NCBI RefSeq assembly: GCF_001083805.1
Contig: NZ_JXSK01000013.1
Coordinates: 1-64,000 of the forward strand
Reading direction: 5' to 3'
Source of the DNA: Photorhabdus luminescens subsp. luminescens
GTDB taxonomy: Bacteria > Pseudomonadota > Gammaproteobacteria > Enterobacterales > Enterobacteriaceae
DNA length: 64,000 nucleotides
The notes beneath the pieces are model-generated. The model was not told the DNA's origin. It saw nothing but the letters and a program-made list of their open reading frames with translations, and searched no databases. Positions 1 through 17,228 of the stretch are shown one piece after another. The translations under genes were made by a program, and so were the position numbers. Position 1 is the stretch's first letter, and each line of letters begins with the position of its first letter.

Positions 1-43
1 CTCCCTAAGATATCATTTTATATTAACTACAAATTGGTGAAAT

Positions 44-310
44 ATGATGAATAAATCAGAGATTTTTTCTATTATTAAAAACATTTTGACGAAAGAATTA
101 AATGTCGGTTCTCTTAATGACATAAGTGAATCAACATCATTACGTGATGAACTTGGGCTAGATTCAATGACTACACTGACATTTTTAATGTCTCTAGAGG
201 ATAACGTTCCAAATTTTATGATTGATGCAAATACATTGGAAGCCAGTGATGTACAAAGTATTGGCTCTGTCTGTGATTATGTTTTAGAACGCCTAAATGG
301 TGTATCATGA
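44..310 (+). CDS. Acyl carrier protein (stand-alone ACP/PCP)
   Basis: Small free-standing carrier protein of 88 residues. The motif GLDSM puts the phosphopantetheine-accepting serine at residue 41 inside an otherwise acidic helical protein, as usual for ACP/PCP proteins. It would hold acyl or aminoacyl thioesters for the ligases, dehydrogenase and KAS III-like proteins that follow. Two ATG codons are adjacent (44 and 47) behind a GGTG-type ribosome site, so the start is uncertain by one codon. It is the only carrier protein visible here and the first complete gene; the cluster probably extends upstream. Substrate unknown. Confidence 0.88.
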   Translation: MMNKSEIFSIIKNILTKELNVGSLNDISESTSLRDELGLDSMTTLTFLMSLEDNVPNFMIDANTLEASDVQSIGSVCDYVLERLNGVS

Positions 311-311
311 C

Positions 312-1190
312 ATGATTTACGTAAATCAAGTTTTCTGCGAAATAATGAATAAGAGATCTCTCAGAAAAACCCCAAGAAACCGTTATTCCATATACCAGAA
401 AGACTTGCATCGTATTTCTCAAGATGAATTAACTGATTCAACCTTATTAGAAGGTGAACAATACTCTTATACTGAATTAGGCGATTCTGTTCTTAAGAAA
501 ATGGAAAATTCTATTTTTTTAAGTGATGTTGATTTATCTATATTTGCCTATTGGACACCTGAGTTTGATCCGGATCATTCAGCTTTTGGTCCATATTTTA
601 TGGACCAATATAACCTTAAAGGATACTCATTCGACATTTGTGACAATGGAAGTTTGGTATCAACCACAGCTTTAGGTATTGCTGACAATTATTTATCTAG
701 TGATAGTGCGAGTAAAATATTACTGTTAGGAATGGAGCAAAATACTATTCCTCGTAATATTTCTAACGGATTTCCAATACCAGAGCGGTCTTGTGCTATT
801 GCAGCCTTACTCACAACGGAAAAAAGCAATGAAAATAAATGGATATTATTAAAAACAGGGCAGGTAAGTGAATGGGAGTTGGCTGATGGTTTGGATGCCT
901 TTGGCATGGTAAGAAATATATTGCATCAATTGCAGTTAGATGAAGAAGATACTGTATTATTAACAGAGCGTACAGGTTATTTCTTTAAAAAAATACGTTT
1001 TCAAATAGAAGCAAAAGATAGGAAAAATTCAATCAAATTTGCTTTCTTGAAACCTGAAGTCACAGGAATGAATATATTGTTACTTCTAGCGGATAAGACA
1101 CTAACACCATTAAATAGAAGGAACATATTATTAGTAGAGCATGATATGGAAAGTTTAAGAATAGCATGGTCTGTCTTACAAAAAATTTAG
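312..1190 (+). CDS. KAS III-like (thiolase-fold) protein lacking the catalytic cysteine
   Basis: A thiolase-fold protein of about 292 residues, recognisable by alignment with the two KAS III-like proteins further along the cluster. Where those have SNNC, this one has DNGS, so the nucleophilic Cys appears replaced by Ser; the PHNVN histidine motif is also absent. It is likely catalytically inactive as a ketosynthase and may be a structural partner, as PqsB is to PqsC, or a modified acyltransferase. A start at 312 (MIYVNQVF) fits the family's N-terminus better than an upstream ATG at 297, which overlaps the ACP gene. Function inferred from fold only. Confidence 0.6.
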   Translation: MIYVNQVFCEIMNKRSLRKTPRNRYSIYQKDLHRISQDELTDSTLLEGEQYSYTELGDSVLKKMENSIFLSDVDLSIFAYWTPEFDPDHSAFGPYFMDQYNLKGYSFDICDNGSLVSTTALGIADNYLSSDSASKILLLGMEQNTIPRNISNGFPIPERSCAIAALLTTEKSNENKWILLKTGQVSEWELADGLDAFGMVRNILHQLQLDEEDTVLLTERTGYFFKKIRFQIEAKDRKNSIKFAFLKPEVTGMNILLLLADKTLTPLNRRNILLVEHDMESLRIAWSVLQKI

Positions 1191-1200
1191 GAATCTAATC

Positions 1201-1875
1201 ATGTTTAATATCAGCTATCCATTCGAATCAAAGAAAGAACAACGTTTTCACTGGTCGATGGAACAATTAGCCCAAACAGTTTTCTCTACATCAAGCAAAA
1301 TTGTTGTGAGAAACGGGTTTGCTGTAGTTTCAGAAGAACAATGGAAGAATTCAGAATTACACTTTTTAGATGAAAAACAACATAGTTGGAAAGAGATAAA
1401 TACTGTCACTGTTCTTCCTGTCTGTAATAGTCTGAAGCGCCAGAGATTATTATTATGCAAATTGAAAGTAAAAGATGGTGATATTGCTCCACAAGAGATA
1501 GCGAAAAAGTATGTTAACTATCAATGTGAAATGATACGAATGCAACTTATTTGGATTGAACGATGGATATCGATTTTACTTGATCATACAGCCCAACGTA
1601 AGGTTGGCAATGTTTCTCTATTATCAATTTCCTCTATTCGTCTCCGTTTAGCGCAAGTTATACAGCGTCAATTATTATTATTTCAGTGTGTAGGAGACAT
1701 AAAAGAAAAAATACCTTCACAATTTGCTGAGCACGCAGCTGAAGAAATTGAGGAAATGATTAATATCCTGATTAAAATAACAGGGGGAAGAGCTCTTCTG
1801 CAACAAGGGTTGGTTGAAATGCAGCACATTTTTTCTGTTCTGAATCAAGTTTATTTGAGGAAGTTTCATGGTTAA
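1201..1875 (+). CDS. Uncharacterised biosynthetic protein, possible acyl-CoA dehydrogenase C-terminal-like helical domain
   Basis: 224 residues with no motif I can assign firmly. The C-terminal half is helical and includes GGRALLQQG, which weakly resembles the C-terminal helical domain of acyl-CoA dehydrogenases; no FAD-binding segment is visible. It sits 10 bp after the Cys-less KAS III-like gene and overlaps the start of the split dehydrogenase gene by 8 bp, so it is translated with that pair and may be a half-size partner of the dehydrogenase. It could equally be a cluster-specific protein of unknown fold. Confidence 0.6.
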   Translation: MFNISYPFESKKEQRFHWSMEQLAQTVFSTSSKIVVRNGFAVVSEEQWKNSELHFLDEKQHSWKEINTVTVLPVCNSLKRQRLLLCKLKVKDGDIAPQEIAKKYVNYQCEMIRMQLIWIERWISILLDHTAQRKVGNVSLLSISSIRLRLAQVIQRQLLLFQCVGDIKEKIPSQFAEHAAEEIEEMINILIKITGGRALLQQGLVEMQHIFSVLNQVYLRKFHG

Positions 1876-2946
1876 TTTTGACGATTCTATTGCCTGTACG
1901 CATTATGGAAAAAAATGGTTAGAGTTAGCTCAACTATTTCGCTCTTTGTCTTTGAAGGTGTTAGATGATCGGAATACTGTATTATCACATCTTGACGCAC
2001 CGCTTTTCGACCAACTTTATATGGATCGCAGTAGTAGCTGTCTGGAAAGGACAAAAATGTATGAAGTGCTTGCTTACGGAGATCCAAATGTCCTGCTGTC
2101 ATGTCCAGGTCCGTCTCTTTCCGGTATCATTGTACGAGAATTAGGCTCAACTGAACAACAAGACTATTTTTTGAATATGTGGCTCAGCATAAAGCTCGTA
2201 CCTGTATGGCAGTCACAGAGCCAAGCAAAGGCTCTGATGCAGGAAATCCGTCTTCATTGTTAAGTGATGATTTTGAACTTAACGCTGAAAAATGGCTAGT
2301 AGGTAATGGACACGATGCTACGATCGGAACAATGGTTGTCAGAACTGGAACGGGGCCATACAGTATCGGTGTAATTTTGTTGACACCTGAAACCCTTTCT
2401 CATCCTAAAGTTTTTCGTCAGTTGCTACCTGTTGCTGGACTGCAAGGTGCTGGCTTAAGCCACCTATATTTTGACAAAACTCCTATCTCTGAAGAACACA
2501 TTTTGGGCTTGCACCGTAGACCATTAGAAAGAGGTATGCACTCAGTGATAAAAACTTTTTATCGTATGAGGCCTTGTGTATGTGCTATGGCGTTAGGTAG
2601 TGCTCAAGCACTACTTGATTTTGCCATATCACATATAAGTAATGTGAAAGCTCGAGAGCTCCACTCCTCCTTGCAGATTGAAATTGAAGCTATAAGAAAT
2701 CTGAATTATCGTGCCGCCTTGAGAATAGATGATAACATATTGGATGGTGCAGCTGTTTCATTAGCCAAAGCTTGTTCTACCGAGTTTGTGGAAAAAGTTG
2801 TTCGTATCATGCCAAAGCTTGTTGGAACAGAGCTTTTTCTAACAGATATCTGGTTACAGAAGACAATTACTGATATTCAAGGATATGAATGGATGGAAGG
2901 AAGTCTGGATATGCAACGTCTAAATATTTTGGCTGGATCTATATAA
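1868..2946 (+). pseudogene. Acyl-CoA dehydrogenase family protein, split by a -1 frameshift at T TTT TTG
   Basis: Two overlapping frames together make a normal-length dehydrogenase of about 385 residues. The first frame runs 1868-2263; the second is open from before 2179 to 2946 and carries CMAVTEPSKGSDAG, the flavin-binding signature. Joining them at the T6 run near 2168-2174 gives a smooth reading (DYFFEYVAQHKARTCMAVTEP). Family members PltE, RedW and CloN3 oxidise carrier-bound prolyl groups to pyrroles; others oxidise acyl-ACP. The junction is a canonical -1 slippery heptamer in frame, so this may be programmed frameshifting or a phase-variable tract rather than a dead gene. Sequencing error is also possible. 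Confidence 0.7.
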
Positions 2947-2980
2947 TTTATTGAATATAACAAATAAATTGGTAATTTGT

Positions 2981-4351
2981 ATGACAATGCAATCCATATT
3001 TCAGCGGAGACATTTTCAGCGATATCAGTGGTTAAAATTACTTAGTGATCTTTGGAATACTGGCATCACACTTTGGGGAACTATGGTAGTTTCTGCAACT
3101 GCTGTGTTAATCAACATTAGCATTATTAGTCATAATTCACCTAATATGTTATATGTAACTGGATTATTCTTACCGCTGAATTATATGATGATGTCCATCC
3201 ATGAAGGATTGCGTGTACCTGCATTGCGGTATAGTTCACATTTAGGAAGTGCTAATTTTTCTCTATTAGGACAACGGTTATTATTGTTGTTTTTAGCTAT
3301 GTTAGCATTAATGGCAATACTCATATTCAATGTATGGTATTTTCGAAGTGGTATTTCTTATTTGTTTCATATTGAATCTTCACAGCAAGATGAAGTAATG
3401 AATTTTATCATTCCTATGCTTTTTATTGGGATAATGATTGGTTTTGCCACATTAATTTTATCCACTTTATTTGGTCTTGGATTTAATCGTTATGGAAGCT
3501 TACTAGGAATATCAGGTACCGTACTTAATATAGGTACAACTTACTTAACTGAGATATATTGGCATCAGGGCTTACAAAGCCTGATTTGGGGGGCAACTTT
3601 TGGTAGCTGCTATCTTATTTTAGTAGGAAGTATTTTACTCTATCGTCAAGGCGTGGTTATATCTTGGTTAAGAATGAGCGATCAATTTTTTCAAGTAATA
3701 AAAGATATATTTACGATGTCTTTACCCGTAATGGGGAGTTTCTCCCTTGTTTTTATTTTTTTATTTTCCTTTAATTATCTGGTGTCTTTTTATGATGTTT
3801 ATGAAATAGCAGGGTTTAGCATAGCTTTTCGTATACAGTCGTTTGTTATTTTGCCTGCTATTGCCTTAGGAACAGCTATAGCAATTCACTATAATAATTC
3901 TTTATCTAAACGGAATCTTGTCAGAGCTAACCAAGTATTTTTGATTGGTCTTAGTCTCACTGGTGTTATATATATATTTATTAGTGTTGCTGTATTCTTT
4001 TTGAAAGTTTGGTTAGTTAAGATTTTTACTTTAGATGAATTGATTGCTGAGGCTGCTTTACGCTATTTAAATTGTGTATCTCCATCCTATCTTAGCTTAG
4101 GCATAGTATTAGGGTTAATGACTGCTTTAGAGCAGATTGGTCAAGGATTACGAGTACTACTTATCAATATCACCTTGTATTCTCTGGAGATTGGAATAGC
4201 TGCATTATTAGGATTAAAGCAGGAAGATGCTACACGGTTGTATCTGACTATTGCTATTTTTAATTGGATTTCTGTGCTTTACACTTTTAGTATTTTTAAT
4301 AAAAAAAGTGATTTTAACATTAACTGCTCTTCCGGTGATATACACTCTTAA
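2981..4351 (+). CDS. MATE-family efflux transporter
   Basis: Polytopic membrane protein of about 456 residues with roughly twelve hydrophobic segments in two similar halves, the architecture of MATE (NorM/DinF-like) cation-coupled drug exporters. It probably exports the cluster's product or an intermediate, or gives self-resistance. An upstream in-frame TTG at 2951 is possible, but the ATG at 2981 places the start nearer the first hydrophobic segment. It lies 34 bp after the dehydrogenase gene and 25 bp before the ligase gene, in the same transcription unit. Confidence 0.82.
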   Translation: MTMQSIFQRRHFQRYQWLKLLSDLWNTGITLWGTMVVSATAVLINISIISHNSPNMLYVTGLFLPLNYMMMSIHEGLRVPALRYSSHLGSANFSLLGQRLLLLFLAMLALMAILIFNVWYFRSGISYLFHIESSQQDEVMNFIIPMLFIGIMIGFATLILSTLFGLGFNRYGSLLGISGTVLNIGTTYLTEIYWHQGLQSLIWGATFGSCYLILVGSILLYRQGVVISWLRMSDQFFQVIKDIFTMSLPVMGSFSLVFIFLFSFNYLVSFYDVYEIAGFSIAFRIQSFVILPAIALGTAIAIHYNNSLSKRNLVRANQVFLIGLSLTGVIYIFISVAVFFLKVWLVKIFTLDELIAEAALRYLNCVSPSYLSLGIVLGLMTALEQIGQGLRVLLINITLYSLEIGIAALLGLKQEDATRLYLTIAIFNWISVLYTFSIFNKKSDFNINCSSGDIHS

Positions 4352-4376
4352 TTAATTTAATTGTCAGGATGATTAC

Positions 4377-5954
4377 ATGAATTATAATTTGGTTGAGATT
4401 ATTAGAGATGCTGAAATGGCATATCCCCAAAAAACAGCTTTAATTTTCAACAATCAGAATTATACTTACAAAGATATATGGAGGCAAATATGTGCTATTG
4501 CAGCAGGTATGCGGCTGAATGGACTACAGCAAGGAGACAAGGTAGTAATTTGTTTAGGAAATCATGTAAACTCTATTGCTATATTTTTTGCTGCACAAAA
4601 ATTAGGTGCCTGTCCATCTATCATAGCATTTGATACACCAGAAGAAAAAATTAAATTTATTTTAAACAACAGTGGAGCTAGTTTCTTCTTCACTTCTTCA
4701 AAGATTGCAGCAACATTACTAAAATATGATCATTTTTATTTTTCAAACATTAATTTGATTGTTGATGAAGTTGAGAATATATATGCTGAAAATAATTTAA
4801 TTAATTTTTATGATTTTATTTCCGATCCGATTTCTGAAGCTAATATTCCACTTCAGGCAATTAGTGTTGATTTGGCTTCTATTATTTATACTTCAGGTTC
4901 TACTGGTGAACCGAAAGGAGTTATGTTAAGTCACCAAAATATGATGGCAGCTACACGGTCTCTGGTAAATTATTTAGAGTACCACCACGATGATACAGTA
5001 ATGGCAGTATTGCCAATTGCCTTTGATTACGGACTATATCAGATAATTTTAGCATTTTTTGTTGGGGGAACAGTGGTACTTGAGTCAAATAATACGCCTC
5101 CACCGGTAGTATTAAGGCATATTCAACAATACCGTTGCACAATTATGCCTGGGCTATCATCACTGTATAGTTTACTTGATATTTATGCTAGTAAAGGTTC
5201 TTTTGATTTGAGTTCTATACGTCTTGTCTCCAATACAGGTATGGCTTTGCGTAAACAGCATGTGTCAATGATTAAAAGACTATTCCCTACAGCCAAAATA
5301 TTTTCTATGTATGGACTGACAGAATGTAAACGTTGTACATATCTTCCTCCAGATGATCTAGACCGCAAACCAGATAGCGTAGGGATTGCTATCCCAAATA
5401 CTCAAATTATGGTTGTAAATGATAATAATCAACCCTGTGCAGTAGGCGAAATTGGACAGTTATTAATTCGCGGAGAAACTGTAATGCAAGGATATTGGCG
5501 TAATTCCGAAGCAACAGAAAAAAGAATTGGCATACATCCTATTTATGGGGATCGTTGTCTATATTCTGGTGACTATGGTTGGTTGGATGAAGAGGGGTAT
5601 TTTTATTTCGTTGGTCGTATGGATGAAGTTGCAAAAGTCCGTGGCCGCAAGGTAATTTTCAGTGAAATTGAAAAAGTTTTGTTTGGTCATAATTCTATTA
5701 TAGAAGCCGCGGTTATTGTACATTCTGGTGAAGAAAGTTCTGAAGATAGTATTATTGCTTTTGTGGCAACCCAGACACAAGAGAAACTATTAGAATCTGA
5801 TTTGAAACATTTTTGTTCTAATTTGTTAGAATTGCACCAAATACCCAGTGTTTTTATACAATTACCTCGGTTACCAAAAAATGCAAATGGAAAGTTTGAT
5901 AAGCATCAACTGCGTCAAAGATACCAATCTATAATTCAGGAGCGGTCCGCATGA
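4377..5954 (+). CDS. Adenylate-forming acyl/aminoacyl ligase (class I, exosortase-A-cluster type)
   Basis: 525-residue AMP-forming ligase. It has the P-loop YTSGSTGEPKGV, the motif MYGLTECKR followed by LPPDDLDRKP, the SGDYG aspartate, and a C-terminal PKNANGKFDK lysine. TECKR plus LPP(D/E) is what I recall from the ligases encoded with a PLP decarboxylase and an ACP in exosortase-A polysaccharide loci; this cluster carries a matching decarboxylase at 15908. The likely role is ATP-dependent loading of an acid or amino acid onto the ACP. Substrate not predictable by eye. The stop overlaps the next gene by 4 bp. Confidence 0.85.
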   Translation: MNYNLVEIIRDAEMAYPQKTALIFNNQNYTYKDIWRQICAIAAGMRLNGLQQGDKVVICLGNHVNSIAIFFAAQKLGACPSIIAFDTPEEKIKFILNNSGASFFFTSSKIAATLLKYDHFYFSNINLIVDEVENIYAENNLINFYDFISDPISEANIPLQAISVDLASIIYTSGSTGEPKGVMLSHQNMMAATRSLVNYLEYHHDDTVMAVLPIAFDYGLYQIILAFFVGGTVVLESNNTPPPVVLRHIQQYRCTIMPGLSSLYSLLDIYASKGSFDLSSIRLVSNTGMALRKQHVSMIKRLFPTAKIFSMYGLTECKRCTYLPPDDLDRKPDSVGIAIPNTQIMVVNDNNQPCAVGEIGQLLIRGETVMQGYWRNSEATEKRIGIHPIYGDRCLYSGDYGWLDEEGYFYFVGRMDEVAKVRGRKVIFSEIEKVLFGHNSIIEAAVIVHSGEESSEDSIIAFVATQTQEKLLESDLKHFCSNLLELHQIPSVFIQLPRLPKNANGKFDKHQLRQRYQSIIQERSA

Positions 5955-7024
5955 AACACCATCATGTGATATTGACATCTTGTGCTATTGTAGCAGTTAT
6001 TTTTGCAGGAATTTCTATCAACTTGGTTGCTGTTCGAGGAATTAATAATACTGAGGAGAAAGATACAAAAATATCTGTTACACAAAAAGGGCCTCCGCCA
6101 ATCTTGGTTGAAACAGCACAAGTCACTTCAATGAATTGGCAAGATAGAAAAAGTGTTATTGCTACAGTTAAATCAATACGCTATCTCCCTGTTCGAGCTG
6201 AAATATCTGGGACCATTTTGCAAATTGCACCTGCCGGAGGGCAGGTGCCAATCAATGGGGTATTGTACCATTTTGATGACCGCGTTGAACGTTTTCAGCT
6301 TAAGGAAAAAGAAGCTCACTTAGATATGACCCAGAAAAATACCAAGCGTGCCGATTTACTGGTGAATAAGGCAATTTCACAAGCAGCTCAACAAGCTGAG
6401 CACGTTAACTTAGCTCATGCTGTCAGTGAAGTAGAAAAATTTAAAAATACATTGCGTAAAATGATGGTTACAGCTCCATTTGCTGGAGTTGCTAGTTTAC
6501 ATGATTTGACGCCAGGACAGTTGATTCAGGAAGGCCAAACGTTATTTTCATTTTATGATCCAAATGATTTATATGTTGAATTCAATATCCCTGAAACTGA
6601 TATTGGAGCTCTATCGCCTGGTGTCCAGATTAATGTAAGTGATACTGTCTCTGGTTTTACTGGTATAGCCAACATTACATTGGTCAATACTGAAGTAAAT
6701 CCTATCAACAGAACTCTAACGTTACGAGCTAAATTGGAAAAAGGTAATTTTCGTCATGGTGCTAGCGTTCGGGTGACTTATCCTGCGAACGCTCCTCAGA
6801 TGACGCTAGTGATACCCAAAGTTTCTGTACGTTATAGTGCCTATGGGCAATCAGTATTTGTAGTAAAAGACAATCGAGTCCAACTCCGTTCTATTGTTAC
6901 TGGAGACGATAATGAGGGCATTGTCCAAGTAAGGAAAGGGTTAGAAAAAGGTGAATTAGTGGTGACTGCCGGGCAAATGCGTCTATACCCAGATGCTCCT
7001 ATTCGTCAGGAAACCCACCAATGA
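5951..7024 (+). CDS. RND efflux periplasmic adaptor (membrane fusion protein)
   Basis: 357 residues with an N-terminal membrane anchor (about residues 7-28), a lipoyl/barrel-sandwich region, a short helical hairpin and a beta-barrel domain, as in AcrA/MdtA-type adaptors. It bridges the inner-membrane pump encoded directly downstream (4-bp ATGA overlap) to an outer-membrane channel. No TolC-type channel gene is visible here, so the chromosomal TolC is probably used. The co-translated layout suggests dedicated export of the cluster's product. Confidence 0.9.
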   Translation: MKHHHVILTSCAIVAVIFAGISINLVAVRGINNTEEKDTKISVTQKGPPPILVETAQVTSMNWQDRKSVIATVKSIRYLPVRAEISGTILQIAPAGGQVPINGVLYHFDDRVERFQLKEKEAHLDMTQKNTKRADLLVNKAISQAAQQAEHVNLAHAVSEVEKFKNTLRKMMVTAPFAGVASLHDLTPGQLIQEGQTLFSFYDPNDLYVEFNIPETDIGALSPGVQINVSDTVSGFTGIANITLVNTEVNPINRTLTLRAKLEKGNFRHGASVRVTYPANAPQMTLVIPKVSVRYSAYGQSVFVVKDNRVQLRSIVTGDDNEGIVQVRKGLEKGELVVTAGQMRLYPDAPIRQETHQ

Positions 7025-10000: not shown

Positions 10001-10062
10001 TTTTCCTGCTGCCTTCGCTTTATATCTTTGTACATAAAAAAACGAATGGAGCCACATCGTGA
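7021..10062 (+). CDS. RND multidrug-type efflux permease (AcrB/MdtB family)
   Basis: 1013 residues, the normal length for HAE1-family RND pumps. It opens with LRRPIIVTTFSGLLF and has paired halves with large periplasmic loops. The proton-relay aspartates are in LATGLVVDDAIIVL, and the conserved FSALL-type region and C-terminal membrane bundle are present. With the adaptor before it, it would expel a hydrophobic product using proton motive force. It overlaps both neighbours by 4 bp, so translation is coupled. A pump inside a biosynthetic operon usually implies export and self-protection. Confidence 0.93.
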   Translation: MKIIGLFLRRPIIVTTFSGLLFIAGLFSLGYLPVGLYPRVDADAISVSTFYPGASANLMDGRVTSEVLSAVSGIDDINYVTSTSETGRSKVVLHLAIGSDTQKVLTNIMERVNTISHFPNDMEPPQISRQEAERIPDFALSFTSETMQAAQVSDFLHRVVKPRLESLKGVGNVEILGSEYAMRIWLDPERMERHGVTAIDISKSLKLENAQANGGALHDSKLRFQLVPETGLSTISDFANLSIITATNISPVRLKDVADIELGGSQPEIKSIFNGKPATIVLINWQQGSNPLLAADDIYKTIGELKSSFPYDLQANVLIDSSEYIGGAVHEVFITILLTCCAVTLVIFLGAGTLRAVAIPVIAIPLSLIGVCLVIYLCGFSINTLTLLAMVLATGLVVDDAIIVLDIALHRIRMGDTPYKAALKGGNEIAISLVTMTLTLAIVYLPLAFIGGIVGKLFSEFAVTLAGAVIISGILALSLTPVMCARMLSTNHQHSLMVIRVEKMFARFRRSYERILIRLMKTGNFPLWLWATTLAGVIILFIILPHALAPKEDQGSLMVIAEGPSVIGTDYIEQHTPILENIYSTLPEIANFNYVIGVPKDNQLLSFVRLINWSERQRSTIQLQPELQNIVAKIPALQSVVILPSSLPGVGGLPFQFVLKHEDKDYASLDTLSDLMLREMRASGMFLFLKKDLKYDTPQIHIRLDREQLAKVGISASDVGYSMNLAYANTKLQPFIYEGRTYNVIMALKKTERAAIQSLLDLQVRSIDGNLIRLGSLVTQNPEVGPESLNTFQKQAAVTLQGVLAPGIGQSEATEFALQLLHNLKSQGVSYDLSGETRQSKEEGQRLLVTFAIALVGIYCLLALQLTNYLGPLIVLLGSIPFSVLGALLALFWFDVPLDMFTQVGMLTLVGLISKQGILMVQATDNLCKKNGISIYYATVRASASRLRAIVLTTLTMILGALPLLFASGPAAESRFELGLVIIMGMLVGSCLTLFLLPSLYIFVHKKTNGATS

Positions 10063-11006
10063 GTCTAATAATTAATGATATTGGTGTTTATTTGCCAGAA
10101 CAGAAAATTGGATTGGAGCGAGTTCCTATTGAGCCTCAATTATCTGAAGATGCAATCAAGATATATCAGCGTTTTTATGGGTTAAATCGCATTGCTCTCA
10201 GTAAGATATCTCTGGAAGAAATGATGTATCGCGCAGCTCAAGATACGCTGACACGTAATGGTATAGCAATAGAATCTATTACTTTACTTATTCATGCGCA
10301 TACTGCTCCAGAAACTTGGACTTACCCAAATAATTTGTTGTCGAGGTTGAACCGACGATTGGGATTGCGTAATGCAACTTGTTTCTCTATTCACTCGAAT
10401 AACTGTGCTTCTAATCTTAATGGATTGCAGGTAATTCAAAATCATCTAATTGGAAACAGTGGTCAAGGTTATGCATTATTGCTGACAGCTGACCTAACTT
10501 TTAGCGGTATTTTACAACAGATTCCCAATACTACGTTGTGTGGCGATGCCGCTACAGCTTGCATAATTAGTCTAGGAAGTGATGGCGCCAAAATGAAAGC
10601 CTTAGAAATTGATTACTATGGACAACACTCTAAAGGTTCCTGGCAAACCGCAGAAGAACAAGTGCAATTTGAAACCAGTTATGCTGAACGCTTGGCTAAT
10701 GTAATGGAACGCTGTTTAAAACAATCTAATTTGTCTTGGGAACAGATCCGTTGGGTTTTTCCCCATAATGTGAACTTGATTTCATGGCGTGATGTAACCC
10801 AAAAAATCGCGTTACCTCTGAGCAAAGTTTATTTGGATAAATTACCTGAATTAGGTCACTGTTTTGGGGCAGATATCTTTATCAACTGGAATTTTGCTAG
10901 AGATACACTGCGATTAGGAGATTATGTAATGGTTGCCACTGTAGGATTAGGGGCAGTATTCGGTGCTGCTATTTTTCAATTAGTTAAAGAGGACATTGAA
11001 TCATGA
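10059..11006 (+). CDS. KAS III-like acyltransferase/ketosynthase with an altered third catalytic position
   Basis: 315 residues, thiolase fold. The nucleophile is C116 in SNNCASN and the histidine is H236 in FPHNVNL. Where FabH has the NTSAAS asparagine loop, this protein has LGHCFGAD, placing His267 there. Relatives with changed triads (CerJ- or CloN2-like) transfer acyl groups to O or N instead of making C-C bonds, so an acyltransferase role is plausible but unproven. The start is GTG in a 4-bp overlap with the pump gene, and its stop overlaps the next ligase by 4 bp. Confidence 0.78.
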   Translation: MSLIINDIGVYLPEQKIGLERVPIEPQLSEDAIKIYQRFYGLNRIALSKISLEEMMYRAAQDTLTRNGIAIESITLLIHAHTAPETWTYPNNLLSRLNRRLGLRNATCFSIHSNNCASNLNGLQVIQNHLIGNSGQGYALLLTADLTFSGILQQIPNTTLCGDAATACIISLGSDGAKMKALEIDYYGQHSKGSWQTAEEQVQFETSYAERLANVMERCLKQSNLSWEQIRWVFPHNVNLISWRDVTQKIALPLSKVYLDKLPELGHCFGADIFINWNFARDTLRLGDYVMVATVGLGAVFGAAIFQLVKEDIES

Positions 11007-12568
11007 GAGTTTTTAAACACTTAGGTGAATGGCTACATGATAGCGCACTGAAATATGCAGATCACCAAGCGTTATCTATTGATAATGATGTATATAGTTA
11101 CCGTGAGCTACACGAGTTAGCATCCCTTCTGGCCCGAGGTTTCTCTCTTTCACAGAGAAAATATTGTGCTTTGCTTGGAAGAAGAAATGTAGGAATCTTA
11201 GCAGGTGTTGTAGCTTCATTGTGTTACGGTAAGACTTATTTGCCATTAAACGAAGACGAGACTCCTGAAGGTCTGAGTTTATTATCTAAAATTACTGACT
11301 TTGATTTATTGGTGACTTGCGCTGAGGAGCAAAAGTTATTGCACGATTTGTTGAAACATATAGATAAACCGTTAGTAATAATTTTGTCAGATAGCAAACA
11401 ACGTCCGAATTGGTGTAATGATTATCCAAAACACTATTTTCTCGCACATGCTGATTTAGCCAGGATTCCTGCTGCACAAATGAAAACGGATAATCCTGAT
11501 GCATATTTGATGTTCACATCAGGTAGTACAGGTAATCCTAAAGGGGTTGAGGTTGCACATACTAATGTTACACGCTATGTCTCCAATACCATAGCTCTGT
11601 ATCAACCAACCTGTGCTGATCGTTTTTCTCAAATTTGTCCTCTGAGCTTTGATGTTTCCGTCCACGATCTATTTGTTCCTTGGACTATTGGAGCATCGAC
11701 TCATGTTTTTGATTCCAAAAACAGTTTAGTGCTTGGAGGGTTTATTCGAGATAAACATCTGACATTTTGGGCATCGGTGCCTTCTATTATTCTATACTTT
11801 CAGCGCTCACGACAATTGGAACCAGGTTCTTTTCCTAACTTACGCCAATCGCTATTTTGTGGAGAACCTTTATTACAGAGCATGGCTGAAAGTTGGCATC
11901 TGGCTGCACCTACATCACATATTGATAACATTTATGGGCCAACGGAAGCAACAGTTGCAGTTTGCGGTTATCGCTGGCGCCCTGAGTCGACAGTAACTAA
12001 TGAATTGATTGTTCCAATTGGAACTCCTTATCCTGGTACAAAGTTAAAGATTGGGCGCCCGCGTCAAAGCGAGGGGGATGTAGAAGAAGGTGAATTATGG
12101 ATTGGCGGTAAACAGGTGGTTAGTGGTTACTTATCAAGTAATTCTATACAGGCTGATAACTTCGAATATGACGGTAGTTGTTATTGGTATCGTACTGGGG
12201 ACTGGGTTAAGCGTGACAGTGATGGAATATTTCATTTCTTAGGACGTTGTGATGATCAACTGAAAGTCAATGGTCAACGTTTGGAGCGTTTGGAAATCGA
12301 GTCAATGCTAAGTAAGGCAGTAGGGATTGACGATATTGCGGTTATTGGCTGGCCTATTATAGAAGGGAACTGTGTTGAAGGATTAGTGTTCTTTATTTCT
12401 GGGCATGAAAAATCTAATCTAGAGCTGCGTAAAAGATGTCAGCAGTTTATGCCCCGAAGTATGTGGCCAACCAGATTGGTGATAGGGGCTATTCCTAAAA
12501 ATCGTAATGGAAAAACAGACTATAAGAAATTAAAGGCAAAACTTGCTGAAGGTAAAGTATCTTCTTAA
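11003..12568 (+). CDS. Amino-acid adenylation enzyme (stand-alone A domain, PltF/CloN4/DltA-like)
   Basis: 521 residues with the core motifs of a stand-alone adenylation domain: FTSGSTGNPKGVEVAH, SFDVSVHDLF, NIYGPTEATV, YRTGDW, GRCDDQLKVNGQR and the C-terminal catalytic lysine in PKNRNGKTDY. The overall pattern resembles single-module amino-acid loaders such as prolyl-carrier ligases (PltF, CloN4) or DltA, not fatty acyl-CoA ligases. It probably activates an amino acid and loads the ACP. With the dehydrogenase this would parallel pyrrole-2-carboxyl formation, but proline specificity cannot be read by eye. Last gene of the tightly coupled first operon. Confidence 0.83.
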   Translation: MRVFKHLGEWLHDSALKYADHQALSIDNDVYSYRELHELASLLARGFSLSQRKYCALLGRRNVGILAGVVASLCYGKTYLPLNEDETPEGLSLLSKITDFDLLVTCAEEQKLLHDLLKHIDKPLVIILSDSKQRPNWCNDYPKHYFLAHADLARIPAAQMKTDNPDAYLMFTSGSTGNPKGVEVAHTNVTRYVSNTIALYQPTCADRFSQICPLSFDVSVHDLFVPWTIGASTHVFDSKNSLVLGGFIRDKHLTFWASVPSIILYFQRSRQLEPGSFPNLRQSLFCGEPLLQSMAESWHLAAPTSHIDNIYGPTEATVAVCGYRWRPESTVTNELIVPIGTPYPGTKLKIGRPRQSEGDVEEGELWIGGKQVVSGYLSSNSIQADNFEYDGSCYWYRTGDWVKRDSDGIFHFLGRCDDQLKVNGQRLERLEIESMLSKAVGIDDIAVIGWPIIEGNCVEGLVFFISGHEKSNLELRKRCQQFMPRSMWPTRLVIGAIPKNRNGKTDYKKLKAKLAEGKVSS

Positions 12569-12937: not shown

Positions 12938-13870
12938 ATGCTAAATGGAGTCAATGATATATTGCACATCATTGGTAGTGGAGTAATGCACTACAATTGG
13001 CCATCTTCATTAGGAACTATTTCTGCTACTCTTTGGTATCCTGCATATGCTGGGAGTGGAACCGTAAAACGATACAGGGATATATTACATGCAAAATCAG
13101 AAGAAAATGCAATTCCCATGGGAACAAATTGGCCATTGATAATAATTTCTCATGGTTCTTGCGGTTCGCGTTTTGATCAATCATACCTTGCCGAATTTTT
13201 ATCAACACAAGGTTTTGCTGTATTAGCTGTGGATCATCAAGATATTCAGGATGCTCAGTATCGTTGGATGAATTTGACGACTAGACCTCAACGTTTAGTG
13301 TATGCATATAATGAGTTACTTTTAGAGACTCTAGGTGAGAGAATAAACTTTTCGCGTCTATTGGTAATAGGCCATTCCGCTGGAGCGTATGATGCATTAG
13401 TGATGTGTGGTTGTCAGCCTTGTTTTGAACTGGAACCAGAGTTTTCATCAGTACTAGATGAGCTATCGTGTTTTGCAGTTGAACAATGTTTGCTTAAGGA
13501 TATTTGTGCTGTGATCTTACTAGCTCCAGCTTTGTCAAATTTGTTTCTTGCTAATACCCTAAATGAAATGCTTTTACCTACTTTAATTTTATCAGGTGAA
13601 AGAGATACTATGAAGTTGCTAGGATCACCAACTGATTACGCAACGCACTTGCCTCATGCTAAGCATCATATCCTATTTGGAGCTGGTCATTACGCTTTTG
13701 TTTATGAGTTTTCTCCTTTATTGAAAGCATTAAATTCGATCGTTAGTGGTGGTGATTATGTACCAAGAAAAGAATTGCATTATAAAATAATGAACTATAT
13801 TTCAGCTTTTATAACGCCATTTAGCACAGGGGAAACTATATCTTTACCAAGGAAGCTTATTTATGTTTGA
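12938..13870 (+). CDS. Alpha/beta hydrolase (PAF-acetylhydrolase/chlorophyllase-like)
   Basis: 310 residues. The nucleophile elbow is GHSAG (Ser147), the oxyanion region is ISHGSCGSRFD, the acid is probably the Asp in LILSGERDT and the base the His in FGAGHYAF, so the triad looks intact. No signal peptide is visible, so it should act in the cytoplasm. In clusters of this kind such proteins hydrolyse or transfer thioesters (CloN7 is an alpha/beta-hydrolase-fold protein needed for acyl transfer). The gene overlaps the next by 8 bp. Substrate unknown. Confidence 0.78.
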   Translation: MLNGVNDILHIIGSGVMHYNWPSSLGTISATLWYPAYAGSGTVKRYRDILHAKSEENAIPMGTNWPLIIISHGSCGSRFDQSYLAEFLSTQGFAVLAVDHQDIQDAQYRWMNLTTRPQRLVYAYNELLLETLGERINFSRLLVIGHSAGAYDALVMCGCQPCFELEPEFSSVLDELSCFAVEQCLLKDICAVILLAPALSNLFLANTLNEMLLPTLILSGERDTMKLLGSPTDYATHLPHAKHHILFGAGHYAFVYEFSPLLKALNSIVSGGDYVPRKELHYKIMNYISAFITPFSTGETISLPRKLIYV

Positions 13871-14777
13871 TCCTATTAATCACTACCGGCAGCATACTGA
13901 GGTGACATTAGCAGAATCATATTCATCTCAGCTTGATAACTTACCTAATGGTGTGGAGGAATTAATTTCTATTGTTCAGAATTTATTGATTCATTATCAG
14001 ACAGAAAAAGACAAGCTTAACCCAGATATCATTTCTATACGTAATATAGAAATAGATAGCCGCTGTGTTTCACTGATGTTAAAAAAACTTTTGTTACTTG
14101 ATGATTCAGGTTTTTTAAATCCTCGGCCTCCAGAAAAACGTTTATTATCTACTTGTCGGGATTTTTCGGTTTTATTATGTTCCTTTATGCGACATAAAAA
14201 TATTCCTGCAAGAGTCCGTTATGGATTTGCTCATTATCAATATAATGATGAATGTCCGATGCATGATCATACTTTGGTAGAATATTGGAATGGTACTAGA
14301 TGGTTATATGCCGAAAGTCGATTAAATGTTTCTCCTAAGCCATTATTAGATGTTAATCCATCAGATTTTCCTCGGTATTTATTCTTTAGTGGCGCAGAAA
14401 TATGGAAGCATATCCGACAAGGAACAATGAATGAGCGTATTTTCAGTGGATATCGATTTGATGATGGATATGGGCAATGGATAGTACGTAATTTATTCTT
14501 TTTAGACTTAGCTTCATTGGCTGGATATGAACCGTTGATATGGGATAGCTGGGGAATACTGCTGGAGGAAAAGCCCGGAGTTAGGGTGACGGATGTACAA
14601 CAACTAAACTTTTTGGATCGTATGGCATTGTTGGATCCTTGTTTACCAGATGAATGTAATGAACTGATTACGTCTTTTAATAATTACAGTGGACTGAGTT
14701 ATCGAGGAAAAGTTCATAGTTTTAGCCCGGTATCCGGTGCTTATTGTGTCGATTTACATGCTATATGGAGTAAATAA
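13863..14777 (+). CDS. Transglutaminase-fold protein, candidate amide synthase
   Basis: 304 residues. The papain-like transglutaminase core is visible: Cys98 in STCRDFSVLL, His136 in DHTLVEYW and an acidic partner near YAESRL, separated by IPARVRYGFA as is typical. Most such proteins are proteases or crosslinkers, but AdmF in andrimid biosynthesis uses this fold to join two carrier-bound acyl groups through an amide. Context (ACP, ligases, no condensation domain) makes an AdmF-like role attractive, though it is inference. Translation is probably coupled to the preceding hydrolase. Confidence 0.72.
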   Translation: MFDPINHYRQHTEVTLAESYSSQLDNLPNGVEELISIVQNLLIHYQTEKDKLNPDIISIRNIEIDSRCVSLMLKKLLLLDDSGFLNPRPPEKRLLSTCRDFSVLLCSFMRHKNIPARVRYGFAHYQYNDECPMHDHTLVEYWNGTRWLYAESRLNVSPKPLLDVNPSDFPRYLFFSGAEIWKHIRQGTMNERIFSGYRFDDGYGQWIVRNLFFLDLASLAGYEPLIWDSWGILLEEKPGVRVTDVQQLNFLDRMALLDPCLPDECNELITSFNNYSGLSYRGKVHSFSPVSGAYCVDLHAIWSK

Positions 14778-14782
14778 TTCAT

Positions 14783-15721
14783 ATGATGACTTTAGAGACT
14801 CTTGCTAGCTATGTACCTCAAAAGAGACTTGAGGTTGAAAGGGAATACCAACGCTTAGGTTTAACCCAAAATGAGGCGCGGGTATTTAGCCGTATGTATG
14901 AATTATCTCATTGTCCAGTAGAGGAAGGCAGTGAAGAAGAAATGCTGCTAAAACCCTGCAAGGAATTGTTTCAACAAGCTCCCCACATTAAGCAAGAAGT
15001 TGTATTGCTAGTTTATGCTCATACGGGGACTATAAGTGGTGTATGGGGTCAAAATATGGCTTCATTGCTTGTTCGACGCTTACAGCTACCTAATGCTGTT
15101 GCTATAGGAACCAGCAGCAACAATTGTGTATCCATATTTTCCGCATTATCTTTAGCAAAACATTATTTACAGAATGCACTTCCTAATAGTAAAGCTTTGA
15201 TAGTAGTCGGGGAAATTGCTGACAGTTTTGAACTTAGAATAGTTCCTAATGTAGCGGTAATCGGTGATGCCGCCGCCGCCACTTTGCTATCTCTTAACGG
15301 GAAAGGTCCAAGCATTCTTGCTCATTCTATACATAATTATCCAGGGTATTCTCAAGGTATTTGGTTACCAACTAATTCTGATGCCTATCGAGATTTTGCA
15401 GCGAATTATCAACTCAGATTACAATCTGTGATTCAAGATGTATTACGGCAGGCGGATATTACGATGGATGAAATATCTTATATTATTCCACATAATGTGA
15501 ATATTTTAATATGGCGTCGAGCAGCAGAATTTATGAACATTCCTATAGAAAAGATATTTCTTAAAAACATTAGTGAAACAGCACATTGTTTTGGTGCCGA
15601 TATGCTTATTAATTTACATTCGTTGAAAAATAGTGAAGAATTACATTCAGGAGATAAAGTTTTGCTGATTTCTGCTGGGGTAGGTGGTCTATTTGGCACC
15701 TCTTTATTACTTTATTCGTAA
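14783..15721 (+). CDS. KAS III-like protein, second Cys-containing paralogue
   Basis: 312 residues, similar throughout to the product of 10059-11006. Cys115 in SSNNCVSI and His237 in IPHNVNIL are kept. The third position reads TAHCFGAD, again His (268) instead of the FabH asparagine. The shared HCFGAD signature suggests a subfamily with modified chemistry. Two ATG codons are adjacent (14783, 14786) and no strong ribosome site is visible; it begins 5 bp after the transglutaminase-fold gene. It may act with its paralogue or with the Cys-less protein as a heterodimer. Confidence 0.76.
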   Translation: MMTLETLASYVPQKRLEVEREYQRLGLTQNEARVFSRMYELSHCPVEEGSEEEMLLKPCKELFQQAPHIKQEVVLLVYAHTGTISGVWGQNMASLLVRRLQLPNAVAIGTSSNNCVSIFSALSLAKHYLQNALPNSKALIVVGEIADSFELRIVPNVAVIGDAAAATLLSLNGKGPSILAHSIHNYPGYSQGIWLPTNSDAYRDFAANYQLRLQSVIQDVLRQADITMDEISYIIPHNVNILIWRRAAEFMNIPIEKIFLKNISETAHCFGADMLINLHSLKNSEELHSGDKVLLISAGVGGLFGTSLLLYS

Positions 15722-15907
15722 TTAACCAGTTATGGATATATCCTTTATTTTTTAATAAAGCAAATGTATTTTTATTTCCATGAATATATATGGTAGGGGG
15801 GGTATAACTTTAAAAATACCAGAGATTAACTCTATTCATAAGAATTTTATAATTCTGTTGGTGAATTATATATACTAATGCTGTCTTTTTCTAATGTGAG
15901 GTAAATT
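15722..15907. other. Intergenic region with a G7 tract
   Basis: AT-rich spacer of 186 bp between the third KAS III-like gene and the decarboxylase gene. A run of seven G (15796-15802) stands out from the AT background about 105 bp before the start codon. A TGTGAGGT ribosome-site-like segment precedes the ATG at 15908. The region probably holds a promoter for the decarboxylase. Confidence 0.4.
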
Positions 15908-17167
15908 ATGAATGTAAAAAATGTAATGACACAGAAAAGTTTATCGATGAAAATAGCAGAAAAATTTGTCATTAAAGACGATTGTTTGGAAATAGGAGGG
16001 ATACCATTAACCCGACTGGAAACTCAAATAGGACAAACTCCTTTTTTTGCCTATTCTAGAAAACATATTGACCATCAAGTGCGTCTACTACGTAAATATT
16101 TACCTGAAAAAATTAGTATCCATTATGCAATTAAAGCAAATCCTTTTGTACCCCTTATCCACCACTTATCCCAAAAAATTGAAGGGTTTGATGTTGCATC
16201 TGCGAATGAAATGGCATTGGCGCTAAATACAGGAATCTCTCCTGAAGATATTAGTTTTGCAGGGCCGGGTAAAACAGATACAGAATTAAAAAGAGCAATT
16301 TCTGCACAGGTATTGTTAAATGTCGAGTCGTTAAATGAGTTACGGCGAATTCAAATATTGTCTGAAAAACTTAGTTTGTGCGCACGTGTTTCTTTACGTA
16401 TAAACCCTAATTATAATCTTAACTCCTCTGGCATGAAGATGGGAGGTGGACCACGCCAATTTGGTATGGATGTAATTTATGTCCCTGATGCACTGATGTT
16501 TATACGTGATTGTCCAGATTCCCTAGTTTTTGAGGGATTTCAAATTTATCCTGGCTCACAAAATTTACGTGCAGAGCATCTGATTGAAGCTCAAAATAAG
16601 GCTCTAGATTTAGTAATTGAATTATCACGGTTTGCTCCATCTCCAATACGTCGTTTTAATCTAGGAGGTGGTTTTGGAGTCCCTTACTTTCAGGGAGATA
16701 CAGAACTAAATATTACCGAAGTAGGCAGTGCGATGCACAAACTGGTAGAACGTGCAGAGAAGTTCCTACCTGAAACAGAAATTATTTTGGAGTTAGGTCG
16801 TTATTTAGTTGCTTCATCTGGAATTTATGTGACTAAAATTGTTGAACGTAAGATCTCTCACGATATGGTCTTTTTAGTTACGGATGGTGGAATGAATCAC
16901 CACCTATCTGCATCAGGAAATCTGGGTCAACTAATAAGAAGAAACTATCCTGTAATCATTGGTAACAAAATTAAAGGAAAGAAACGTGAAACAGTGAATA
17001 TAGTTGGCCCACTCTGTACCCCACTAGATATCCTTGTTCATCAAGGAGATATGTCAGCGGCAATTCCGGGGGATTTAGTGGTAATTTTTCAATCTGGCGC
17101 TTATGGTTTAAGCGCAAGTCCAAATCATTTTCTAAGCCAAACAAATGCAGTAGAAATATTAGTTTAA
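15908..17167 (+). CDS. Fold-type III PLP-dependent decarboxylase (DAP/ornithine decarboxylase family)
   Basis: 419 residues. The PLP lysine is K76 in HYAIKANP, followed by FDVASANE, a glycine-rich phosphate loop (NLGGGFGVPY) and the C-terminal active-site cysteine C370 in GPLCTPLD, so both domains look intact. GMKMGGGPRQFG and SGAYGLSASPNHFLS resemble the decarboxylases of exosortase-A clusters and BtrK, which decarboxylates an aminoacyl group held on an ACP. With the ligase at 4377 and the ACP at 44 it could make a carrier-bound amine. It has a separate 186-bp upstream region and closes the cluster. Confidence 0.85.
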   Translation: MNVKNVMTQKSLSMKIAEKFVIKDDCLEIGGIPLTRLETQIGQTPFFAYSRKHIDHQVRLLRKYLPEKISIHYAIKANPFVPLIHHLSQKIEGFDVASANEMALALNTGISPEDISFAGPGKTDTELKRAISAQVLLNVESLNELRRIQILSEKLSLCARVSLRINPNYNLNSSGMKMGGGPRQFGMDVIYVPDALMFIRDCPDSLVFEGFQIYPGSQNLRAEHLIEAQNKALDLVIELSRFAPSPIRRFNLGGGFGVPYFQGDTELNITEVGSAMHKLVERAEKFLPETEIILELGRYLVASSGIYVTKIVERKISHDMVFLVTDGGMNHHLSASGNLGQLIRRNYPVIIGNKIKGKKRETVNIVGPLCTPLDILVHQGDMSAAIPGDLVVIFQSGAYGLSASPNHFLSQTNAVEILV

Positions 17168-17228
17168 TGGTATCAATACATTTTGTTGATTATTTTAGAA
17201 ATATTGTTTTAGATTTATTATGTGATTT

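What the first reader, a model, noticed from the sequence alone, without database searches (positions are those of the whole stretch)
44..17167. Metabolite cluster built from stand-alone carrier-protein enzymes
One ACP, three KAS III-like proteins, a split acyl-CoA dehydrogenase, two ligases, an alpha/beta hydrolase, a transglutaminase-fold protein and a PLP decarboxylase sit with MATE and RND pumps, and no NRPS or PKS module. Single parts recall CloN/Plt (aminoacyl-ACP oxidation and transfer), BtrK (aminoacyl-ACP decarboxylation) and AdmF (amide formation). I do not recognise this combination as a described pathway. It is the best candidate here for an undescribed system.
Basis: partly seen in the sequence, partly recalled or inferred. 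Interest (0 to 1): 0.85.

Follow-up and report, generated by a model that had tools for sequence, protein, structure and literature searches.

The report
Photorhabdus stand-alone-enzyme peptide assembly cluster
A conserved 17-kb gene set in some Photorhabdus bacteria looks built to make a small unsaturated peptide-like compound with separate enzymes on one carrier protein, a style of assembly worked out in 2025 for a Burkholderia antifungal, but with different finishing enzymes and an unknown product.

Summary
The inventory is real: ACP, two KAS III-like enzymes plus a degenerate third, acyl-CoA dehydrogenase (ACAD), two adenylating ligases, BtrK-type decarboxylase, hydrolase, transglutaminase-fold protein, MATE and RND pumps, no NRPS/PKS module by Pfam. 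The host is a Photorhabdus; 4 of 12 genomes of the genus carry it. The split ACAD is a frame break in this assembly; three relatives have one 359-aa gene. dN/dS is 0.05-0.45 in 42 of 42 comparisons. The logic is known: it matches the condensation-domain-free AFC-BC11 pathway (PMC12186527), in which aspartate is loaded on an ACP, decarboxylated to beta-alanine, desaturated, and moved by KAS III-like enzymes. Ligase 1 keeps VinN's Asp230/Lys330/Arg331. Ligase 2 is AlmE/IdnL7-like. Decarboxylase and ACAD are fused in 4 of 10 related clusters. It is not an afc cluster: acyl ligase, citrate synthase and methyltransferase are absent; transglutaminase, hydrolase and a 224-aa protein are extra. Best reading: an acyl- or aminoacyl-dehydro-beta-alanine product, unidentified. 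New variant of a known kind.

The parts
44..310 (+). Acyl/peptidyl carrier protein, the only one in the cluster; phosphopantetheine Ser41
   Evidence: PF00550 E 6e-7; NCBIfam carrier models incl. cispentacin AmcB, all below cut-off; Ser41 by motif
297..1190 (+). KAS1: degenerate KAS III-fold protein, Ser in place of catalytic Cys and no catalytic His; possible non-catalytic partner of KAS2/KAS3
   Evidence: hhalign of its family against the KAS2/3 family, probability 94, E 1.5e-7; active-site alignment; relatives in 8 of 10 related loci, E 1.8e-6 to 0.0016
1201..1875 (+). P224: 224-aa protein of unknown family, conserved in the three other Photorhabdus carriers
   Evidence: no Pfam/NCBIfam; no match in 10 loci or plasmids; dN/dS 0.14-0.16
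1868..2946 (+). Acyl-CoA dehydrogenase, read as two overlapping ORFs 1868-2263 and 2179-2946 (frame break in this assembly; intact 359-aa copies exist in relatives)
   Evidence: PF02770 4.5e-14 and PF00441 8.2e-26 on the second piece; intact in G007, G009, G001
2951..4351 (+). MATE-family exporter
   Evidence: PF01554 5.5e-18; relatives in 4 of 10 related loci by phmmer, a fifth (G478) by blastp
4377..5954 (+). LIG1: VinN-type adenylating enzyme, predicted to load the beta-carboxyl of L-Asp on the ACP
   Evidence: pocket stretch matches only VinN chains in the PDB at E<=1e-8; VinN D230/K330/R331 = D217/K318/R319, F231 to Y218, S299 to T287
5951..7024 (+). RND periplasmic adaptor
   Evidence: TIGR01730 over cut-off
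7021..10062 (+). RND permease (AcrB family)
   Evidence: PF00873 6.8e-227
10059..11006 (+). KAS2: KAS III-like acyltransferase type, Cys116/His236, FabH Asn replaced by His with Asp272 downstream
   Evidence: PF08541 7e-12; alignment; positions
11003..12568 (+). LIG2: AlmE/IdnL7-like adenylating enzyme, small amino acid (Gly or Ala) predicted; pocket nearer AlmE than the VinM type
   Evidence: best PDB sequence matches 4oxi (AlmE) 8.4e-75 and 6akd (IdnL7) 2.2e-64; pocket D V H S L C I V A
12938..13870 (+). Alpha/beta hydrolase with apparent triad Ser147/Asp223/His251
   Evidence: PF00561 and PF03403 above cut-off; motif positions
13863..14777 (+). Transglutaminase-fold protein (TGL), apparent triad Cys98/His136/Glu151; distant relative of a protein in an andrimid-like locus
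   Evidence: PF01841 3e-6; alignment; 26% to L063:8890-9834, pairwise E 3e-20
14783..15721 (+). KAS3: KAS III-like acyltransferase type, Cys115/His237, Asp273
   Evidence: PF08541 1.5e-17; alignment; positions
15908..17167 (+). Fold-III PLP decarboxylase predicted to act on a carrier-bound amino acid (BtrK/VinO/AfcP type); PLP Lys76
   Evidence: TIGR03099 over cut-off, 636.6 bits; nearest solved structures 7ru7 and 2j66 (BtrK)

Best explanation
A carrier-templated peptide pathway without condensation domains that makes an exported small metabolite containing dehydro-beta-alanine (an enamide). Proposed order: LIG1 adenylates the side-chain carboxyl of L-aspartate and loads it on the ACP; the PLP decarboxylase removes the alpha-carboxyl to give beta-alanyl-ACP; LIG2 and/or the transglutaminase-fold protein puts a small amino acid (Gly or Ala) or an acyl group on the beta-amino group, in the way VinM does; the ACAD desaturates the N-acyl-beta-alanyl thioester; KAS2 and KAS3, with degenerate KAS1 as a possible partner, take the chain as a Cys-thioester and pass it to an amine or alcohol; the hydrolase trims or releases; MATE and RND export. 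Shown here: the gene set, its conservation and low dN/dS, the VinN-type pocket, the C/H/D-type KAS III sites, decarboxylase-ACAD fusions in relatives. Inferred: substrates, order, product, export, and the roles of LIG2, KAS1, P224, hydrolase and transglutaminase.
For: LIG1's pocket stretch matches only VinN among PDB chains at E<=1e-8 and keeps Asp230, Lys330 and Arg331; papers give these residues as the basis of beta-carboxylate recognition (passages; AfcQ). The PLP enzyme's nearest solved relative is BtrK. The decarboxylase and an ACAD are one protein in 4 of 10 related clusters, which ties decarboxylation to desaturation. LIG2 is nearest to AlmE (Gly) and IdnL7 (Gly/Ala/Ser); VinM, an enzyme grouped with IdnL7, adds Ala to a beta-aminoacyl-ACP (passages). 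KAS2/KAS3 keep Cys and His but have HxxxxD in place of the FabH Asn motif, in line with the Cys/His/Asp triad reported for AfcL/AfcO. AFC-BC11 shows that the core steps of such a system work in vitro. Fourteen coding stretches have dN/dS 0.05-0.45 against each of three relatives. A block of about 18 kb sits at two different sites: beside cas genes in three genomes and elsewhere in G001, whose cas-side site lacks it.
Against: No chemistry was tested. LIG1 differs from VinN at two pocket positions (F231 to Tyr, S299 to Thr), and over its full length the top PDB matches are gramicidin synthase chains (2 stretches each), with VinN seventh. LIG2 lacks all three residues said to mark VinM-type enzymes: IdnL7 C217, A285, T318 read V218, C286, A319 (alignment, passage). 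No ligase for an acyl chain is in the cluster. Nothing shows which nucleophile KAS2/KAS3 use. The ACAD is broken in the window's own assembly. The best transglutaminase matches are not from known biosynthetic loci (the R. etli one is stand-alone). P224, TGL, the hydrolase and RND have no match by phmmer in 10 related loci.
Confidence: 0.6

Rival explanations
1. Same logic but with L-glutamate: gamma-glutamyl-ACP is decarboxylated to GABA-ACP and desaturated to a 4-aminocrotonyl unit, as BtrK does for butirosin without the oxidation.
For: The nearest solved decarboxylases are BtrK; that LIG1 prefers Asp is inferred from its pocket only.
Against: LIG1 has the VinN/AfcQ/BolO residues tied to Asp or methyl-Asp; butirosin loads Glu with an unrelated ATP-grasp enzyme (recalled).
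Confidence: 0.12
2. A CloN/Plt/Pig-like pathway: one ligase loads L-proline and the ACAD makes pyrrole-2-carboxyl-ACP, which KAS III-like enzymes transfer.
For: ACP + ACAD + ligase + KAS III-like + hydrolase are also the parts of that pathway (recalled); weak NCBIfam hits of the ACAD piece to prolyl-PCP dehydrogenases (E 2e-5 and 8e-4); a prolyl ligase is among LIG2's PDB hits (2.7e-47).
Against: Those two ACAD hits are the weakest of the eight listed and far below cut-off; LIG2 is nearer AlmE and IdnL7 (8.4e-75, 2.2e-64); a side-chain-acid decarboxylase fused to the ACAD in relatives has no role in it.
Confidence: 0.08
3. The ligase-decarboxylase-ACP part decorates a surface polysaccharide or exported protein with beta-alanine, as the neighbours of its 'exosortase A-associated' relatives suggest, and the rest is accessory.
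For: The PLP enzyme is over the TIGR03099 cut-off and is 48% identical to one in a Sinorhizobium glycosyltransferase locus.
Against: No glycosyltransferase or exosortase among the cluster's ORFs by Pfam; LIG1 falls on the KAS-type side of a 100/100 split, though with a long-branch warning; MATE and RND pumps suggest a small molecule.
Confidence: 0.07
4. In the window's own strain the cluster is decaying and makes nothing, or a dihydro (beta-alanine) congener, because the ACAD is broken. (This can hold together with the best explanation for the intact carriers.)
For: ACAD read as two ORFs here and intact in three relatives.
Against: All other genes are full length, and dN/dS is low for the second ACAD piece too (0.09-0.14); an assembly error cannot be excluded. 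In another pathway a bolQ deletion still gives dihydro-bolagladins (passages).
Confidence: 0.2

Closest known systems
afc cluster / AFC-BC11 (Burkholderia cepacia complex; PMC12186527)
   Same: Sole ACP, VinN-type A enzyme, PLP decarboxylase, ACAD, three KAS III-like proteins of which one has an altered triad, no C domain; amide bonds made by stand-alone enzymes.
   Different: By Pfam the Photorhabdus set has no citrate synthase, methyltransferase, glycosyltransferase or desaturase gene, and neither ligase is taken for a fatty acyl-AMP ligase; it has LIG2, a transglutaminase-fold protein, P224 and RND/MATE pumps. LIG1 is 32% and PLP 22% identical to the afc-type locus L052; LIG1 pocket DYTKR against DATFR.
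Bolagladin dehydro-beta-alanine module (Burkholderia gladioli; PMC7756342)
   Same: VinN-like BolO, ACP BolC, BtrK-like BolN, KAS III homologues, ACAD BolQ; bolQ deletion leaves beta-alanine (passages).
   Different: Feeds a modular NRPS; none here. Sequences not compared.
Macrolactam beta-amino acid starter set VinN/VinL/VinO/VinM (PMC11284099)
   Same: Possible counterparts here: LIG1, ACP, PLP, LIG2.
   Different: No PKS, mutase or VinK-type acyltransferase; ACAD and KAS III-like enzymes instead; LIG2 lacks the VinM-type pocket residues.
   Same: In 7 of the 10 loci compared: LIG1-, LIG2-, ACP-, PLP-, ACAD-, KAS1- and KAS2/3-like proteins. S. decoyicus L034 has the ACP-, PLP-, ACAD-, KAS1- and KAS3-like ones, but an NRPS in place of the ligases.
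   Different: They variously add P450, further ligases, luciferase-like oxygenases and ABC exporters; no match to TGL, P224 or RND.
Andrimid AdmF-type transglutaminase homologue (name recalled)
   Same: TGL is 26% identical to a protein of V. coralliilyticus locus L063, which has PKS, A domain, PPTase and accD genes and looks to me like an andrimid cluster.
   Different: Glu in place of the third triad residue; the L063 protein itself gets no Pfam hit; better matches lie elsewhere.

Membership tests
afc (AFC-BC11) clusters | Sole ACP + VinN-type Asp ligase + PLP decarboxylase + ACAD + KAS III-like proteins, no C domain | tested here: met
   by sequence only:
afc (AFC-BC11) clusters | FAAL (AfcA), citrate synthase (AfcS), O-methyltransferase (AfcT), desaturases (AfcC/D/N) | tested here: not met
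   None among the 15 ORFs by Pfam/NCBIfam; a second AMP-binding ORF and a citrate synthase are found in the afc-type locus L052
afc (AFC-BC11) clusters | Product is an N-acyl tetrapeptide with dehydro-beta-alanines | not testable with these tools
   needs metabolite analysis
VinN-type beta-carboxylate adenylating enzymes (LIG1) | Asp230 and Lys330/Arg331 of VinN | tested here: met
   D217, K318, R319
VinN-type beta-carboxylate adenylating enzymes (LIG1) | Phe231 and Ser299 of VinN | tested here: inconclusive
   Tyr218 and Thr287; Thr at this place in 11 of the 12 relatives aligned, incl. the afc-type one
AlmE/IdnL7-like small amino acid enzymes (LIG2) | Nearest solved relatives are AlmE and IdnL7; Asp235 kept; Cys as in AlmE C316 | tested here: met
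   D217 and C286; AlmE L248 reads V218
VinM-type amide-forming enzymes (LIG2) | IdnL7 C217, A285, T318, said to be conserved in VinM-type enzymes | tested here: not met
   V218, C286, A319 (alignment; passage)
VinM-type amide-forming enzymes (LIG2) | Adds the amino acid to an aminoacyl-ACP amine | not testable with these tools
   biochemical
C/H/D KAS III-like acyltransferases (KAS2, KAS3) | Cys and His of FabH kept, Asn lost, Asp present | tested here: met
C/H/D KAS III-like acyltransferases (KAS1) | Catalytic Cys and His | tested here: not met
   Ser at Cys position, no His; 6 of 6 KAS1-family rows lack the Cys
BtrK/VinO-type ACP decarboxylases | Fold-III PLP decarboxylase nearest to BtrK, PLP Lys | tested here: met
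Exosortase A-associated system | TIGR03099/TIGR03098 members | tested here: inconclusive
   PLP over cut-off; LIG1 373.8 bits against a cut-off of 592.35
Exosortase A-associated system | Exosortase and PEP-CTERM neighbours | tested here: not met
   none among the cluster's ORFs; rest of genome not searched for them
CloN/Plt pyrrole pathway | Prolyl-specific ligase | tested here: not met
   no ligase has a prolyl enzyme as its best match
AdmF | Transglutaminase fold with Cys-His-Asp (recalled) | tested here: inconclusive
   Cys98, His136, Glu151

The most novel reading that the evidence does not exclude
The Photorhabdus cluster and its cousins in Rahnella, Tritonibacter, Agrobacterium, Rhizobium and unnamed Proteobacteria form an undescribed branch of condensation-domain-free peptide assembly: a VinN-type and an AlmE/IdnL7-like ligase build a short aminoacyl-dehydro-beta-alanyl chain on a carrier protein, and a KAS III set with a dead partner (in the manner of a chain-length-factor pair) forms the final amide or ester. 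The Photorhabdus version adds a transglutaminase-fold amide synthase and makes a new enamide metabolite for insect or nematode life.
Probability: 0.4. Interest if true: 0.75.

Novelty: new variant of a known kind. Interest (0 to 1): 0.55.

Why it matters
The only reconstituted pathway of this style that I found is AFC-BC11 (2025). A second, compact version with different finishing enzymes, conserved in culturable nematode symbionts, would show which parts are the general core, what the KAS III-like enzymes (including an inactive-looking one) do, and could give a new chemotype. Gene-cluster finders that look for NRPS or PKS modules may overlook such clusters (not tested here).

Tried and rejected
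Structure prediction of KAS1 alone gave a useless model (mean pLDDT 38.5), so no fold search was run; P224 could not be submitted. P224 against the ACAD set and against two small proteins of related loci by hhalign gave nothing (probability 0.3 and 0.1); in that script the set 'smallA' came out empty, so the rows printed for it are stale and not used. TGL against the PDB: no match at E<=1. KAS1 and P224 against plasmids: no match. The CloN/Plt reading was considered and set aside. LIG2 was first read as VinM-type; the three VinM-type residues are not kept, so it is filed as AlmE/IdnL7-like only. L033 of B. cenocepacia was first suspected to be the afc cluster; it has no citrate synthase among the ORFs scanned and is taken as a different, smaller cluster (5 ORFs scanned). 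L052 of B. arboris fits the afc gene order (AMP-binding, ACP-like ORF, AurF-like, KAS, PLP, ligase, ACAD, citrate synthase), but the record bears no gene names, so I call it afc-type. The trees of LIG1 and PLP have long branches and few starred forks, so the mosaic origin they suggest (LIG1 with KAS-type clusters, PLP with polysaccharide-type ones) is only a hint. Nine paper searches listed no Photorhabdus paper on this cluster; some listings were cut (20 of 54; 20 of 35; 20 of 40; 12 of 581), and the library lacks most subscription journals.

Full report
What is there. The window starts at base 1 of contig C13 of a 5.46-Mb genome. The named records that hold relatives of KAS3 are Photorhabdus sp. 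CRCIA-P01, P. akhurstii DSM 15138 and P. noenieputensis DSM 25462 (91-96% identity, 3 of 3 loci), so the host is a Photorhabdus. Between 44 and 17167 lie 14 genes (15 ORFs, since the ACAD is read as two) on one strand. Families are in the parts list. No condensation domain or PKS module was found by these scans. G+C is 36.7% for 1-17273 and 41.6% for the rest of the window.

Conservation and boundaries. Both KAS2 and KAS3 are in 4 of 12 genomes of the genus, the window's own included. In the other three (G001, G007, G009) the stretch from window base 3 to about 15.7 kb aligns at about 94%, and the stretch with the PLP gene at 90-94%. Each of the 15 window ORFs has its counterpart in G007 and G009 (the two ACAD pieces match one ORF), and the ACP-to-ACAD part is there in G001 too; the ACAD is a single 359-aa ORF in all three. 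Nei-Gojobori dN/dS over 14 coding stretches (ACAD by 228 codons of its second piece only) against three relatives is 0.05-0.45 in 42 of 42 comparisons; the highest, 0.34 and 0.45, are for KAS1. No formal test of selection was made. In G007 the 1.1 kb upstream of the ACP hold no ORF of 60 aa or more, and no biosynthetic gene is seen further up by eye. The shared block runs about 0.7 kb upstream of the ACP and ends a little beyond the PLP gene (window about 17,273). In G000, G007 and G009 it lies beside the type I-E cas genes. In G001 the left flank of the G007 site and the cas genes stand about 1.3 kb apart without it, and the block lies on another contig. So about 18 kb moved as a unit. In samples outside the genus no close relative was seen: the KAS3 search gave 2 of 369 genomes of the class at E<=1e-15 (own, and G334, whose 20 kb show a ligase but no PLP or ACAD match) and 8 of 398 of the phylum at E<=1e-11 (own included; next best 28% identity or less); KAS2 gave 1 of 295 of the order at E<=1e-15 (own).

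Related clusters. tblastn of KAS3 against plasmids hit 23 records. I compared 10 loci: L031 Rahnella, L032 Tritonibacter, L033 B. cenocepacia, L034 S. decoyicus, L035 A. vitis, L036 Rhizobium, L052 B. arboris (afc-type), and unnamed G493, G559, G478; other hits were not examined this way. LIG1 has a stand-alone relative in 9 of 10 (in L034 only NRPS domains match), a distinct LIG2-type ligase is in 7 of 10, PLP in 10 of 10 (weakly in L052), the second ACAD piece in 9 of 10 (not L052, though L052 has another ACAD), KAS1 in 8 of 10, ACP in 8 of 10, MATE in 4 of 10 (a fifth by blastp). TGL, P224, the hydrolase and RND matched in 0 of 10 at E<=1; alpha/beta hydrolases of other kinds are annotated in 5 of the 5 annotated loci. 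In 4 of 10 (L032, L036, G559, G478) the PLP decarboxylase and an ACAD are one protein, confirmed by Pfam. That fusion is the strongest sequence evidence that decarboxylation and desaturation act in succession on the same carrier-bound unit.

Enzyme reading. LIG1: the specificity stretch (residues 210-335) matches only VinN chains in the PDB at E<=1e-8; over the full length gramicidin synthase chains rank first (each with two matching stretches) and VinN seventh. VinN Asp230, Phe231, Ser299, Lys330, Arg331 correspond to Asp217, Tyr218, Thr287, Lys318, Arg319. Of 12 relatives, 7 read D-Y-T-H-R, 4 D-A-T-F-R (afc-type, B. cenocepacia, two polysaccharide-type) and 1 D-Y-S-F-R. Papers tie these positions to beta-carboxylate activation of Asp or methyl-Asp (passages; AfcQ Arg311). 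LIG2: best PDB matches AlmE (4oxi, Gly) and IdnL7 (6akd, Gly/Ala/Ser; identities from the table in PMC11253843). It keeps AlmE's Cys (C286) but not the three residues said to mark VinM-type enzymes (V218, C286, A319 for C217, A285, T318), so a VinM-like step is an analogy, not a membership. PLP: BtrK nearest, TIGR03099 over cut-off. KAS2 and KAS3 keep the FabH Cys and His and have HxxxxD in place of the GNTS motif; KAS1 has Ser for Cys and no His, and 6 of 6 rows of its family lack the Cys; it is linked to the KAS III fold only by profile. TGL: Cys98, His136, Glu151 line up with transglutaminase triads; its best matches are Vibrio and Rhizobium proteins at 31-33%, one of which, in R. etli, stands outside any biosynthetic locus, while fusions at 32-33% sit beside MATE and PPTase genes and a 26% relative sits in an andrimid-like locus.

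Comparison with what is known. PMC12186527 (parts 1-4 of 5 of the text read) reconstitutes core steps of AFC-BC11: AfcQ loads L-Asp on AfcK and extends it, AfcP decarboxylates, AfcA acylates, KAS III-like AfcL takes the chain and transfers it to Lys-CoA; AfcE is expected, not shown, to make dehydro-beta-alanine; AfcL/O have Cys/His/Asp and AfcR Thr/His/Glu. PMC7756342 (passages) shows that deleting the ACAD bolQ leaves beta-alanine instead of dehydro-beta-alanine. PMC11284099 (passages) gives VinN-VinO-VinM. PMC6301696 (passages) was seen only for afcE as an ACAD. The window's cluster works like these but is not an afc cluster, since AfcA, AfcS, AfcT and desaturase counterparts are absent and it has genes of its own.

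Judgement. Confidence 0.6 in the dehydro-beta-alanine model, lower for each later step.

Noticed in passing
window 18506-25896: Type I-E cas operon (cas6e, cas5, cas7, cse2, cse1 by Pfam; a 905-aa ORF upstream in the place of cas3, not scanned). Cas1 (PF01867) gave 0 matches in the whole genome (9 of 14 control genomes matched); cas2 was not searched.
   Followed up: partly
G001:C141:8000-18000 (L080) against L021/L022: Site without the cluster: the left flank of the G007 site and the cas genes stand about 1.3 kb apart where G000, G007 and G009 carry it; in G001 the cluster lies on C176 near usher-like and transposase-like ORFs (by eye, not scanned).
   Followed up: yes
L032:16262-18700, L036:16261-18684, L048:15056-17497, L050:11104-13590: PLP decarboxylase fused to an acyl-CoA dehydrogenase, about 810 aa, in four related clusters; I recall no described fusion of this kind and did not search papers for one.
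   Followed up: partly
L058:5989-9813 and L059:7965-10481: Transglutaminase-like N-terminus fused to a UvrA-like protein beside MATE and PPTase genes (Klebsiella grimontii and Paenibacillus sonchi plasmids).
   Followed up: no
L053, L054, L055: VinN-like ligase plus PLP decarboxylase ('exosortase A-associated' in L053 and L054) inside glycosyltransferase loci of Aureimonas, Sinorhizobium and Shinella plasmids, which might mean beta-alanyl decoration of polysaccharides.
   Followed up: no
window 44344-44471: About 128-bp element repeated near the cluster in G007, near the cluster-free site in G001 and near the cas genes of G005 (85-96% identity).
   Followed up: no
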